DNA from: Candidatus Terraquivivens ruidianensis
Lineage (GTDB): Archaea > Thermoproteota > Nitrososphaeria_A > Caldarchaeales > Wolframiiraptoraceae
Direction of reading: 5' to 3'
Assembly: GCA_023267975.1 (NCBI GenBank)
Contig: JALNLA010000001.1
Coordinates: 186,001 to 250,000 of the forward strand
DNA length: 64,000 bases
The translations under genes were made by a program, and so were the position numbers. The stretch's first letter is position 1, and every line of letters begins with the position of its first letter. Below the pieces are notes generated by a model. It ran no database searches. It saw nothing but the letters and a program-made list of their open reading frames with translations, and had not been told where the DNA came from. Shown one piece after another: positions 45,807 to 49,907 of the stretch.

Positions 45807-45827
45807 CTCCACGACTAAAGCCGGGAG
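45807..45827 (-). repeat. Right-end hairpin of the TnpB element
   Basis: Read on the minus strand, CTCC-CGGC-TTTA-GTCG-T-GGAG folds into a hairpin with two 4-bp stems and one bulged T. The G-U pair makes the fold better on this strand, as expected for single-stranded transposition ends or guide RNA. The tnpB stop codon lies inside it. Confidence 0.65.
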
Positions 45828-47047
45828 ATTCTTGCTTCTAAGGTTCTCATCGGTCTGTTGTTCATTACCCTTTTAGGCTCCCACATCATCCCATTCCACC
45901 TTAGAAGCAAAGGGTGTGCCACCACCCTGTTAACCTCGCCTCCGTAGAGGCGAGCTATATTTAATACGCCCACAGCGTCTCTATGGGCTTCCAGTCCGCA
46001 CTTATAACATTTGAACAACCTTCCTTTATTGGTCACGTTTTTTGAACGACATCTTAGGCATGTACTCGATGTTTCATATTCGCTTTCTTCGATAACTTCT
46101 ATTCCATATTCCTCTGCCTTCTCTTTGATCCTTCTGATTATGTAGTTGAAGCTCCAAAAGTTGTTTATTATTGCGTTTATCTTTGTACTACTATGATTAT
46201 TATTCCTTATGTCCTTGATTTTCCCAATGACTATCTTCGATATACCCAATACGTATACATTTTCGACTATGGTTTTTATTATAGCATTTACAGCATGTCT
46301 GAACTTTCGCAGTCTAATCCTATATAGCTTTCTAAGTCCTCTAGATGTTTTACGCTTATTCACCTTAGCTAACCTACTTTGTTCTTTCGCTATCTTCCTC
46401 GTCCAGTACCACCAATCTGCCAATAACGTCCTTCCAGAGTATGCTATTGGTTGTCTTAAACCTTCAAACCATACTGTCGCTAGGTTTATTACACCTAAAT
46501 CTATGTAGAGGGGCTTATTGCCTCCTCTAATGGGAGGCTTCTCAATTTTAACCGTCATAAAGCCCCTCCATACTTTATCCGTATCGTCGTAGATTATTTC
46601 AAGCCTTCCTTTTCTCCCATGCCACTTTAGTTCACCCTTATACTTTAATTTAAGTCCTTTTGGAAGGTAGATGTATTCCTCATCGAACTTGTAGCAATCG
46701 TTTCTTATGATGATTCTAAGCTTTCTTCTGCCGCTCCTCTTCCAATATCTTGGCATTGAAATCTTAGCGATGTACGGTGGAAGCCTTCCTTTCATCTCTA
46801 ACTTCTTTAAGGCTAGGAAGCTTCTCCAAGCCTCGTTATTCTTGTTTATGATTTGCTGTGCCGTTGCTGAACCTATGATTGGAGCGTATTTCTCGTATAA
46901 ATGCTTAGGATGCCAAGAGAACTTCTTATAGCGTATGTAGGCTTGCCTGCGCTCGAAGTTCAGTTCATTCCATAATCTGGCGCAGTTGTCCGCCAGCTTC
47001 CTAAGGCTTGGATGGTCGTTTACTGTGAACGTGTTCGTCCTTTCCAC
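45815..47047 (-). CDS. tnpB: TnpB RNA-guided nuclease homologue
   Basis: The 410-residue OrfB/TnpB protein has the first RuvC Asp in PLYIDLGVIN (about residue 180), the zinc ribbon CLRCRSKN with CYKCG (about 333-354) and the last RuvC Asp in AHRDAVGVLNI (about 359). The middle acidic residue, usually Glu in a VxIEDL-like strand, is not seen: the aligned strand reads IVIGKIKDI. It may use another acidic residue nearby or be nuclease-deficient. TnpB proteins are omega-RNA-guided DNA nucleases that help retain the element. The start is GTG and overlaps the upstream small gene by 28 bases. Confidence 0.9.
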   Translation of the reverse strand: MERTNTFTVNDHPSLRKLADNCARLWNELNFERRQAYIRYKKFSWHPKHLYEKYAPIIGSATAQQIINKNNEAWRSFLALKKLEMKGRLPPYIAKISMPRYWKRSGRRKLRIIIRNDCYKFDEEYIYLPKGLKLKYKGELKWHGRKGRLEIIYDDTDKVWRGFMTVKIEKPPIRGGNKPLYIDLGVINLATVWFEGLRQPIAYSGRTLLADWWYWTRKIAKEQSRLAKVNKRKTSRGLRKLYRIRLRKFRHAVNAIIKTIVENVYVLGISKIVIGKIKDIRNNNHSSTKINAIINNFWSFNYIIRRIKEKAEEYGIEVIEESEYETSSTCLRCRSKNVTNKGRLFKCYKCGLEAHRDAVGVLNIARLYGGEVNRVVAHPLLLRWNGMMWEPKRVMNNRPMRTLEARISRL

Positions 47048-48091: not shown

Positions 48092-49666
48092 TTACCCAAG
48101 GCTTCGCCTAAGCTTGGCGGCCATAACCAACGCTCGCTTAGCTTCATCCACTTTACCTTCGGAGAACAGAATTATGAAGTCGTTCGTGCTATTTTCATGC
48201 CTCTTTGTAACAGAGTTATTGGCCCCTACCCTTAAACCTATTACCTCTTCTGCTACTTTAACATCCTTGACTAATAATGGAAGTGCAAGCTCTACGAATT
48301 CTTTATCAAACGCTCTACTCTCATGGATGGTATCTATATTCCTCCACGAAAAAAATTCTGCAGCAACTTTCAGGTCTTCCTTTATGTTCTTATATGCATC
48401 CAGCAGCGCACGCTGCTCCCCCTCTCTTAGGGTTCCAAAGACTCTCAGTCCTATAAATTCAGGCGGCAAGCCCAAAGAATAGAGAGAAGCTGTGAATGGT
48501 ATGGCCCTCGGCATAGGTACATCACCTATCATCCTACTATAACCGAATAGACCTACATGCAGTCTTCTGGCCCTCCTTGCCGGCACAAGCCTTGATATTC
48601 TCTCGATAGTTTTAGCAGCATGTGCCAAAAACTCATAGTACGCGTCCTTAAACTTGGACGCAACAGATAAAAGCGTCTGCTCCAATTGCGAGAAGTCATC
48701 AATCTCGCCATTTGGTAAGTTTCTGTTTAGATACTCGACAACCATCTTCACGTCGTTCTCAGGGTAGTCGTACTTGAGCCCACACTGTATGGTAACGGTA
48801 TTCACGCCTTTATACTCTTCAACAAAGTTTGCTAGATTGCTTGGTGAAAGATGGCCTCTGAAGGGTAAGCTGCCAACACCGATTATAGGATAGATATCTA
48901 CGCGCTCCTTTTCGATAAGCTCCCTGATTTTGGAGAGCGCGACCTTTACCAGAATTACGGATGACACGAGCCCGTAATGAAGGGCCGGGTCGGACCTGGC
49001 GAGGAAGACGCGTAGATATTTCGGAGAAGTCGCCTCTAAAAGCTTAAAAAGCAAACTGTCTAAACTTACTAAGCTTGACCACTCCTCGAATAGAGGTATT
49101 ACGTTTATGGATCTTGGTCGAATCTCGCCTACCAGTTCTGCTAGCGTAACATCTGGAAAGTCAACCCTTACATTCTCTATGCCGACCACAGCCTCGGAAT
49201 ACGTCCTTAACACCCTTACTACATCCTTATGACTACTAGCGAAAGGTAGTATGACTTCAAAGACCGGTGCATGTTCCCCGTCCCCATAAAACTGTCTGGC
49301 CACGTCAAAATGTTTAGGTATGGCCTGAAGTGTTTCGAGGAATACTTTCTTCTCTACCTTTTCCAGCATCGGGTTTGGAATCCTATATGTGAGGAATATG
49401 TCCCTACCGAGAACCTTTTCTTTAAAGAAGCTAGGATAACTCGTCAGAAGCTTCCTGACGACATGCGGGTCTATGTCCTTTCCCTCAGAGTCCCACATAA
49501 CCTCTTGGCAACCTAGGGTGCTATAGGCATAGTATGCCTCGTAGACCTCCTTCTCACCCTCTATTACATCCGAGTCGCACCAAGGAGGAATAGAAGCGTT
49601 ATCAGGATGTTGCGTTGACATTGTTTTTGGTATCAGTCTTTGCTCACTCAAGTCGTCCAACCCCAT
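48092..49666 (-). CDS. ppcA: Phosphoenolpyruvate carboxylase, archaeal type
   Basis: The 524-residue protein is the short archaeal PEP carboxylase, marked by PKTMSTQHPDNASIPPW (about residues 13-29), GSLPFRGHLSP (about 269) and HVGLFGYSR. It adds bicarbonate to PEP to make oxaloacetate. It is about 400 residues shorter than the bacterial/plant enzyme, which is normal for this class. A first-position alternative start near MSTQHPDN would lose conserved residues, so the upstream ATG is kept. It fits an autotrophic or anaplerotic role. Confidence 0.95.
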   Translation of the reverse strand: MGLDDLSEQRLIPKTMSTQHPDNASIPPWCDSDVIEGEKEVYEAYYAYSTLGCQEVMWDSEGKDIDPHVVRKLLTSYPSFFKEKVLGRDIFLTYRIPNPMLEKVEKKVFLETLQAIPKHFDVARQFYGDGEHAPVFEVILPFASSHKDVVRVLRTYSEAVVGIENVRVDFPDVTLAELVGEIRPRSINVIPLFEEWSSLVSLDSLLFKLLEATSPKYLRVFLARSDPALHYGLVSSVILVKVALSKIRELIEKERVDIYPIIGVGSLPFRGHLSPSNLANFVEEYKGVNTVTIQCGLKYDYPENDVKMVVEYLNRNLPNGEIDDFSQLEQTLLSVASKFKDAYYEFLAHAAKTIERISRLVPARRARRLHVGLFGYSRMIGDVPMPRAIPFTASLYSLGLPPEFIGLRVFGTLREGEQRALLDAYKNIKEDLKVAAEFFSWRNIDTIHESRAFDKEFVELALPLLVKDVKVAEEVIGLRVGANNSVTKRHENSTNDFIILFSEGKVDEAKRALVMAAKLRRSLG

Positions 49667-49748
49667 TCCTTATCCCTTTTAACGTTATCTCAACCTTGGA
49701 AAGATTAGTTGGCGGGCCCGGTGGGATTCGGACCCACGACCTATGGGT

Positions 49749-49767
49749 TACTCCGTTTAATCATACT
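49749..49767 (-). other. tRNA-Lys intron 2, canonical position 37/38 (19 nt)
   Basis: Anticodon-loop bases CTCT (tRNA positions 32-35) pair with intron bases GGAG to form the 4-bp central helix. The 5' bulge is TAA and the 3' bulge is TAA. Cutting after the second base of each gives a normal seven-base anticodon loop. Confidence 0.88.
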
Positions 49768-49782
49768 TAAGAGCCCACCGCT

Positions 49783-49795
49783 TTAGGCGAAACCC
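49783..49795 (-). other. tRNA-Lys intron 1, D-arm position 22/23 (13 nt)
   Basis: D-loop bases AGGT pair with intron bases GCCT (one G-U) to form the 4-bp central helix, with bulges AGG and AAA. Cutting after the second base of each bulge rejoins G22 to A23 and completes the D stem GCTC/GAGC. At 13 nt this is a very short intron at a non-canonical place. Confidence 0.85.
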
Positions 49796-49843
49796 CTACC
49801 TGGCTGAGCTACGGGCCCCGATTCTGATGCTCTAAATACCTCA

Positions 49844-49851
49844 ATTATAAA
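49844..49851 (-). promoter_or_regulatory. TATA box of tRNA-Lys
   Basis: On the minus strand TTTATAAT is centred about 30 bases before the first mature base. It lies back to back with the promoter of the cyclophilin-like gene. Confidence 0.5.
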
Positions 49852-49907
49852 CTTATCCGAAATATGTGAATACGGATTATCCGAGATTAGCCTTTGGGTC
49901 CAAGATG

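What the first reader, a model, noticed from the sequence alone, without database searches (positions are those of the whole stretch)
49713..49818. tRNA-Lys gene with two introns, one of only 13 nt in the D arm
Besides the usual 37/38 intron, a second intron interrupts the D stem between positions 22 and 23. Both have a clean 4-bp central helix and 3-nt bulges. Non-canonical and multiple tRNA introns occur in Thermoproteales and some thaumarchaeal relatives, but a 13-nt D-arm intron is very short, close to the lower limit for forming the fold. Standard tRNA finders may miss this gene.
Basis: partly seen in the sequence, partly recalled or inferred. Interest (0 to 1): 0.6.

Follow-up and report, generated by a model that had tools for sequence, protein, structure and literature searches.

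The report
Archaeal tRNA-Lys gene with two introns

Summary
Window 49818-49713 (minus strand) is a tRNA-Lys(CUU) gene: three exons totalling 74 nt, CCA encoded at 49712-49710, a 13-nt intron between positions 22 and 23, and a 19-nt intron at 37/38. The genome belongs to Candidatus Terraquivivens (Wolframiiraptoraceae, Caldarchaeales). The best evidence is comparative. All six Terraquivivens genomes carry both introns; the D-arm intron drifts from 13 to 15 nt while the 74 exon positions vary at only two. Four of five genomes of a second genus (g5) have a 17-22-nt insert at the same site. The fifth, three other genera of the family and other families have uninterrupted 74-nt genes whose D arm matches the predicted spliced product. 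The genome has a two-subunit splicing endonuclease with the loop lysine linked to relaxed substrates, and an RtcB ligase. No second tRNA-Lys(CUU) gene was found. Splicing itself was not tested. Verdict: real and correctly read, new member of a known kind, low to moderate interest.

The parts
49796..49818 (-). 5' exon: tRNA-Lys positions 1-22 (GGGCCCGTAGCTCAGCCAGGTAG)
   Evidence: Identical in all six Terraquivivens genomes; first 28 nt of the spliced product identical to the uninterrupted gene in L107
49783..49795 (-). 13-nt D-arm intron at 22/23, GGGTTTCGCCTAA; layout 1 + 6-nt loop + 4-nt helix strand GCCU + 2
   Evidence: BHB solution; 13-15 nt in six congeners, 17-22 nt in four genomes of genus g5, absent in uninterrupted orthologues
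49768..49782 (-). middle exon: positions 23-37 including anticodon CUU (AGCGGTGGGCTCTTA)
   Evidence: Invariant in six genomes; ARAGORN on the spliced sequence gives Lys(ctt)
49749..49767 (-). 19-nt canonical intron at 37/38, AGTATGATTAAACGGAGTA; central helix CUCU:GGAG, outer helix = anticodon stem
   Evidence: BHB solution; 18-20 nt in congeners
49713..49748 (-). 3' exon: positions 38-73, with C55 instead of U55
   Evidence: Alignment A1; variable columns 48 and 56 of 74
49710..49712 (-). genomically encoded CCA end
   Evidence: Sequence
49838..49859 (-). conserved promoter block CGGATAAGTTTATAATTGAGGT, TATA-like TTTATAA at -33 to -27 from G1
   Evidence: Nearly invariant in five Terraquivivens loci while sequence further upstream is not conserved
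48092..49666 (-). archaeal-type phosphoenolpyruvate carboxylase gene directly downstream, same strand; conserved neighbour, not part of the tRNA
   Evidence: TIGR02751 563.8 bits; same order in L001, L002, L003, L044

Best explanation
This is the functional, and apparently only, tRNA-Lys(CUU) gene of a Terraquivivens species. Its transcript carries two protein-spliced archaeal introns. The two-subunit (alpha-beta)2 splicing endonuclease cuts the canonical BHB motif at 37/38 and a relaxed BHB motif at 22/23, where D-loop nucleotides 17a-20 (AGGU) pair with GCCU in the intron and each cut falls after the second base of a 3-nt bulge. RtcB then joins the exons, restoring D stem GCUC:GAGC and the CUU anticodon loop. 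Shown: gene structure, conservation, uninterrupted orthologues, presence of both enzymes. Inferred: transcription, cleavage, ligation and their order.
For: Perfect cloverleaf only after removal of both inserts. Six congeneric loci with both introns, exons invariant at 72 of 74 columns while both introns vary in sequence and length. The last intron base varies G/A without any change at C13, as expected if G22 comes from the 5' exon. Uninterrupted 74-nt Lys(CUU) genes in genera g2, g3, g4, in one g5 genome and in other families of the order, 64-68 of 74 identical to the predicted mature tRNA and 26-28 of the first 28. Same-site inserts of 17-22 nt in four g5 genomes. Conserved TATA-like block. 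EndA alpha L074 (PF01974 and PF02778; closest solved relative A. pernix 3P1Z, E=3.6e-50, catalytic Tyr/His/Lys kept, loop motif K41-P-K aligned to A. pernix K44-P-R) and beta L075, which lacks the catalytic His and Tyr. RtcB at G000:C2:96872-98185. AAG outnumbers AAA 138 to 81 in nine window genes, so the tRNA is needed.
Against: No RNA data. Predicted folding of the precursor does not favour the D-arm BHB. In two g5 genomes the central helix has an A-G mismatch (L152, L159; read). C55 instead of U55 is unusual for a working tRNA, but Lys(UUU) of the same genome and of two congeners has it too.
Confidence: 0.95

Rival explanations
1. The 13 nt are not spliced out; mature tRNA-Lys(CUU) keeps an enlarged D loop.
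For: In congeners with G as last intron base (L001, L002, L044, L137) GCUC:GAGC could pair around a long D loop. Folding energy does not favour the BHB.
Against: In the window and L003 that base is A, giving a C13-A mismatch with no compensation. Uninterrupted orthologues have a 9-nt D loop and G22-A23-G24-C25. The insert varies in length (13-15 nt, 17-22 nt in g5) beside invariant exons.
Confidence: 0.02
2. Splicing occurs in another register, for example an 11-nt intron TTTCGCCTAAA using helix UAGG:CCUA, giving D stem GCUC:GGGC and an 11-nt D loop.
For: Second-best solution of the search (21.1 against 21.46).
Against: The product would differ from every uninterrupted orthologue (GGUAGAGC or GGUUGAGC), contain a U12-G23 wobble, and the register is not available in the g5 genomes, where the sequence reads GGTAGAG.
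Confidence: 0.02
3. The gene is a decayed pseudogene and another gene supplies tRNA-Lys(CUU).
For: C55 in place of the near-universal U55.
Against: No other CUU gene found; exons and promoter block under strong constraint in the genus; C55 also in Lys(UUU) of three species.
Confidence: 0.02

Closest known systems
Archaeal BHB tRNA introns at non-canonical positions (22/23 listed in PMC4090602; many in Thermoproteales)
   Same: Position, BHB central helix and 3-nt bulges, coexistence with a 37/38 intron, (alpha-beta)2 endonuclease
   Different: Host is a Caldarchaeales archaeon; outer and inner helices unusually weak; 13 nt is under the reported median of 15 but inside the reported range 11-129 (PMC3218864)
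Caldiarchaeum subterraneum tRNA-Thr(GGU) with introns at 24/25 and 45/46 (PMC3293823)
   Same: Caldarchaeales (Aigarchaeota); a D-arm intron as one of two introns in a tRNA
   Different: Other tRNA, other positions; linked there to a mobile element and population heterogeneity, no sign of which was looked for or seen here
Split tRNA-Lys(CUU) of Nanoarchaeum equitans and Staphylothermus (PMC3218864)
   Same: Same isoacceptor disrupted and restored at a BHB junction
   Different: There trans-spliced from two genes at 30/31; here one contiguous gene with cis introns
13-nt introns of tRNA-Met 30/31 (L059), Val(CAC) 25/26 (L064) and Gly(CCC) 37/38 (L061) in the same genome
   Same: Same 13-nt layout 1 + 6 + 4 + 2
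   Different: Different sequences and positions. The Val and Gly placements were assigned by hand: the automatic search gave other solutions for them

Membership tests
Functional elongator tRNA-Lys(CUU) | Complete cloverleaf with CUU anticodon after splicing | tested here: met
   Lys(ctt), all four stems fully paired
Functional elongator tRNA-Lys(CUU) | Conserved T-loop U54-U55-C56 | tested here: not met
   C55 in the window gene, U55 in five congeners; C55 also in Lys(UUU) of this genome
Functional elongator tRNA-Lys(CUU) | Expressed and aminoacylated with lysine | not testable with these tools
   No RNA or protein data
Archaeal BHB tRNA intron (canonical 37/38) | 4-bp central helix, two 3-nt bulges, flanking helices | tested here: met
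   CUCU:GGAG, UA^A and UA^A, outer helix = anticodon stem
Archaeal BHB tRNA intron (non-canonical 22/23) | 4-bp central helix and two 3-nt bulges at the splice sites | tested here: met
   AGGU:GCCU, AG^G and AA^A; kept in all six congeners
Archaeal BHB tRNA intron (non-canonical 22/23) | Flanking helices h and h' of the strict hBHBh' motif | tested here: not met
   Only 2 outer bp (G15-C25, C16-G24) beside bulged C17, and at most 1-2 inner bp: a relaxed form
Archaeal BHB tRNA intron (non-canonical 22/23) | Orthologous gene without the intron has the predicted exon junction | tested here: met
   L107, L108, L109, L111, L112, L114, L121-L124, L127, L131
Archaeal BHB tRNA intron (non-canonical 22/23) | Broad-specificity endonuclease and RtcB ligase in the genome | tested here: met
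   L074 alpha with KPK loop motif, L075 beta, RtcB
Archaeal BHB tRNA intron (non-canonical 22/23) | Excision in vivo | not testable with these tools
   Needs tRNA sequencing

The most novel reading that the evidence does not exclude
The 22/23 intron of tRNA-Lys(CUU) is one homologous intron shared by two genera of Wolframiiraptoraceae that has shrunk from about 17-22 nt to 13-15 nt, losing almost all flanking helix, so that this family gives a natural series of how small and structureless a spliced tRNA intron can become.
Probability: 0.35. Interest if true: 0.35.

Novelty: new member of a known kind. Interest (0 to 1): 0.22.

Why it matters
It documents tRNA gene structure in a largely uncultured archaeal family (Wolframiiraptoraceae) whose tRNA genes carry many short, non-canonically placed introns, and adds species-level comparisons showing how such introns persist, change length and are absent in close relatives. 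It shows that automatic annotation can miss or mislabel these genes (ARAGORN called some congeneric copies Stop, Asn or Leu). It does not change the understanding of tRNA splicing.

Tried and rejected
Thermodynamic folding as proof of the D-arm motif: inconclusive, the MFE prefers other folds. Pair-covariation test of the central helix: not pursued, because the exon strand is invariant and the intron strand barely varies inside the genus. A third PF01974 match (L076, 18.1 bits, under the cut-off) was dismissed; the small ORF there matches no Pfam family and lies antisense to a synthetase-like gene. An aminoacyl-tRNA synthetase tree to decide between one shared 22/23 intron and two gains was too poorly resolved between genera, with g2 divergent. 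The g2 genomes G006, G010 and G021 were searched, but the four loci fetched were not Lys(CUU), so these three were not scored. The automatic solver fails on several other tRNAs of this genome (long variable arms, acceptor-stem and some two-intron genes), so no full intron census is claimed.

Full report
What is there. The finding lies on the minus strand, in the intergenic stretch upstream of an archaeal-type phosphoenolpyruvate carboxylase gene. Rfam's tRNA model matches exactly 49713-49818 at 43.6 bits, gathering score 29; ARAGORN in its default bacterial setting misses it. The precursor is 106 nt. Removing 13 nt (49783-49795) and 19 nt (49749-49767) leaves 74 nt that ARAGORN calls tRNA-Lys(ctt); with only one removed it fails or gives an undefined tRNA. 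CCA is encoded at 49712-49710. A script that enumerates BHB motifs and scores the spliced product, told nothing about the finding, returned these two introns as its best solution.

Whose genome. The PEP carboxylase is 83-90% identical to proteins of Candidatus Terraquivivens tikiterensis, T. tengchongensis, T. yellowstonensis and an unnamed relative, L044. NCBI places the genus in Wolframiiraptoraceae, Nitrososphaerota; PMC9246946 treats the family as Caldarchaeales (syn. Aigarchaeota). The window is part of a 1.30 Mb, 97%-complete genome.

Is the D-arm insert an intron? The four loci just named have the tRNA in the same place, with both inserts; L137 from genome G003 makes six genomes with the window, and L157 from G002 reads the same as L003 in the tRNA. 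Across the six the D-arm insert is 13, 14, 14, 14, 14 and 15 nt, the 37/38 insert 18-20 nt, while the 74 exon columns vary at only two, 48 and 56. The last base of the D-arm insert is A in the window and L003 and G elsewhere, with no change at C13: expected if that base is intronic and G22 belongs to the 5' exon. Outside the genus, uninterrupted 74-nt Lys(CUU) genes occur in genera g2 (L111), g3 (L108), g4 (L109, L114), in G009 of g5 (L112) and in other families (L107, L121-L124, L127, L131); all read through the junction at the predicted place, 64-68 of 74 positions equal the predicted mature tRNA in the seven compared, and L107 equals it over the first 28 nt. Other g2 genomes have only a 37/38 intron (L142, L143, L145, L146). 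Four g5 genomes (G012, G014, G016, G018) have 17-22-nt inserts at 22/23 and none at 37/38 (L158, L152, L159, L141). So the insert is optional between species, sits at one site and varies beside constant exons: an intron.

Structure. Both introns have a 4-bp central helix between exon and the 3' end of the intron and 3-nt bulges cut after the second base: AGGU:GCCU with AG^G and AA^A for the D arm, CUCU:GGAG with UA^A and UA^A for 37/38. The 37/38 motif is extended by the anticodon stem. The D-arm motif is relaxed: two outer pairs (G15-C25, C16-G24) beside a bulged C17, and next to no inner helix around a 6-nt loop. Minimum-energy folding does not prefer it (-40.0 free, -36.9 with cloverleaf arms forced, -35.2 with the D-intron helix added), and 1.8% of shuffled inserts pair as well in that register, so the motif by itself would not prove the intron. 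Relaxed motifs are known substrates of (alpha-beta)2 endonucleases (PMC6379350).

Machinery. The genome encodes a catalytic EndA subunit (L074: PF01974 102.5 bits, PF02778 72.5 bits) closest among solved structures to the Aeropyrum pernix subunit 3P1Z, with the catalytic Tyr, His and Lys in place and K41-P-K aligned to A. pernix K44-P-R in the Crenarchaea-specific loop, and a second subunit (L075) lacking the His and Tyr (alignments read by eye; that 3P1Z is the A. pernix enzyme is my own knowledge, the table gives only the molecule name). PMC12397907 describes the loop lysine as typically followed by Pro or Val and then a basic residue, as here. RtcB ligase is present. A conserved block CGGATAAGTTTATAATTGAGGT ends about 20 nt before G1 in five congeneric loci while sequence further upstream is not conserved, as expected for a tRNA promoter. 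AAG is used 138 times and AAA 81 times in nine window genes. No other Lys(CUU) gene appears among 37 tRNA-model hits and a genome-wide T-loop pattern search.

How unusual is it? Position 22/23 is listed among known non-canonical sites (PMC4090602). Published archaeal tRNA introns span 11-129 nt with a median of 15 (PMC3218864). The same genome has 13-nt introns of the same layout in tRNA-Met, Val(CAC) and Gly(CCC) (the Val and Gly assignments were made by hand, and for Gly they imply an unusual C33), a 14-nt one in Arg(UCG), and further introns in Ile, Asn, Tyr, Lys(UUU), Leu(CAG), Gly(UCC), Ser(CGA) and others. The Gly(CCC) gene of T. tikiterensis is one base shorter in the insert, 12 nt. Intron-rich tRNA sets with relaxed motifs are a known trait of archaea with this endonuclease type (PMC4090602, PMC6379350). 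The finding is therefore a correct reading of an ordinary kind of gene.

What remains open. Splicing is inferred, not observed. Whether the g1 and g5 22/23 introns are one inherited intron or two gains is undecided: the synthetase tree did not resolve the genera. The C55 in both lysine tRNAs of this genome, also in Lys(UUU) of G003 and G005 and in no other of the 41 genomes scanned with the exact pattern GGGTCCRAATCCC, is unexplained.

Noticed in passing
window 49713-49748 (position 55); L063/L203 (Lys UUU, G000:C2:158564-158659); L201 (G003), L202 (G005): T-loop reads UCCGAAU, C55 instead of the near-universal U55, in both lysine tRNAs of this genome and in Lys(UUU) of two congeners, but in none of the other 38 genomes scanned with the exact pattern. 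Lys(CUU) of five congeners has U55, so the change in Lys(CUU) may come from exchange with Lys(UUU).
   Followed up: partly
L059, L061, L064 (G000) and L001:11743-11828: Other 13-nt tRNA introns with the layout 1+6+4+2 (Met 30/31, Gly(CCC) 37/38, Val(CAC) 25/26), and a 12-nt insert in T. tikiterensis Gly(CCC); the Gly genes seem to have C33 instead of U33 if the intron is at 37/38.
   Followed up: partly
L103 (G000:C2:162090-162320), L104 (G000:C3:140560-140780), L069 (G000:C2:143322-143454): tRNA-Asp(GUC), His(GUG) and Glu(UUC) appear to have introns near the acceptor stem (about 3/4 and 8/9) and in the D loop.
   Followed up: partly
L095, L097, L100, L102 (G000): T-loop matches without an Rfam call at those places that look like further tRNA genes with non-canonical introns; Gln, Trp, Cys, Ser(GCU) and Arg(GCG) were not among the Rfam hits.
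   Followed up: partly
L136/L156 (G002) and L063 (G000): tRNA-Lys(UUU) has a 15-nt insert near 37/38 in one Terraquivivens genome but a 21-nt intron at 30/31 in three others: intron position differs within the genus.
   Followed up: no
window 45815-47047 (-): TnpB-like IS605 OrfB protein (PF07282, PF01385) of 410 aa; no other part of an element was looked for.
   Followed up: no
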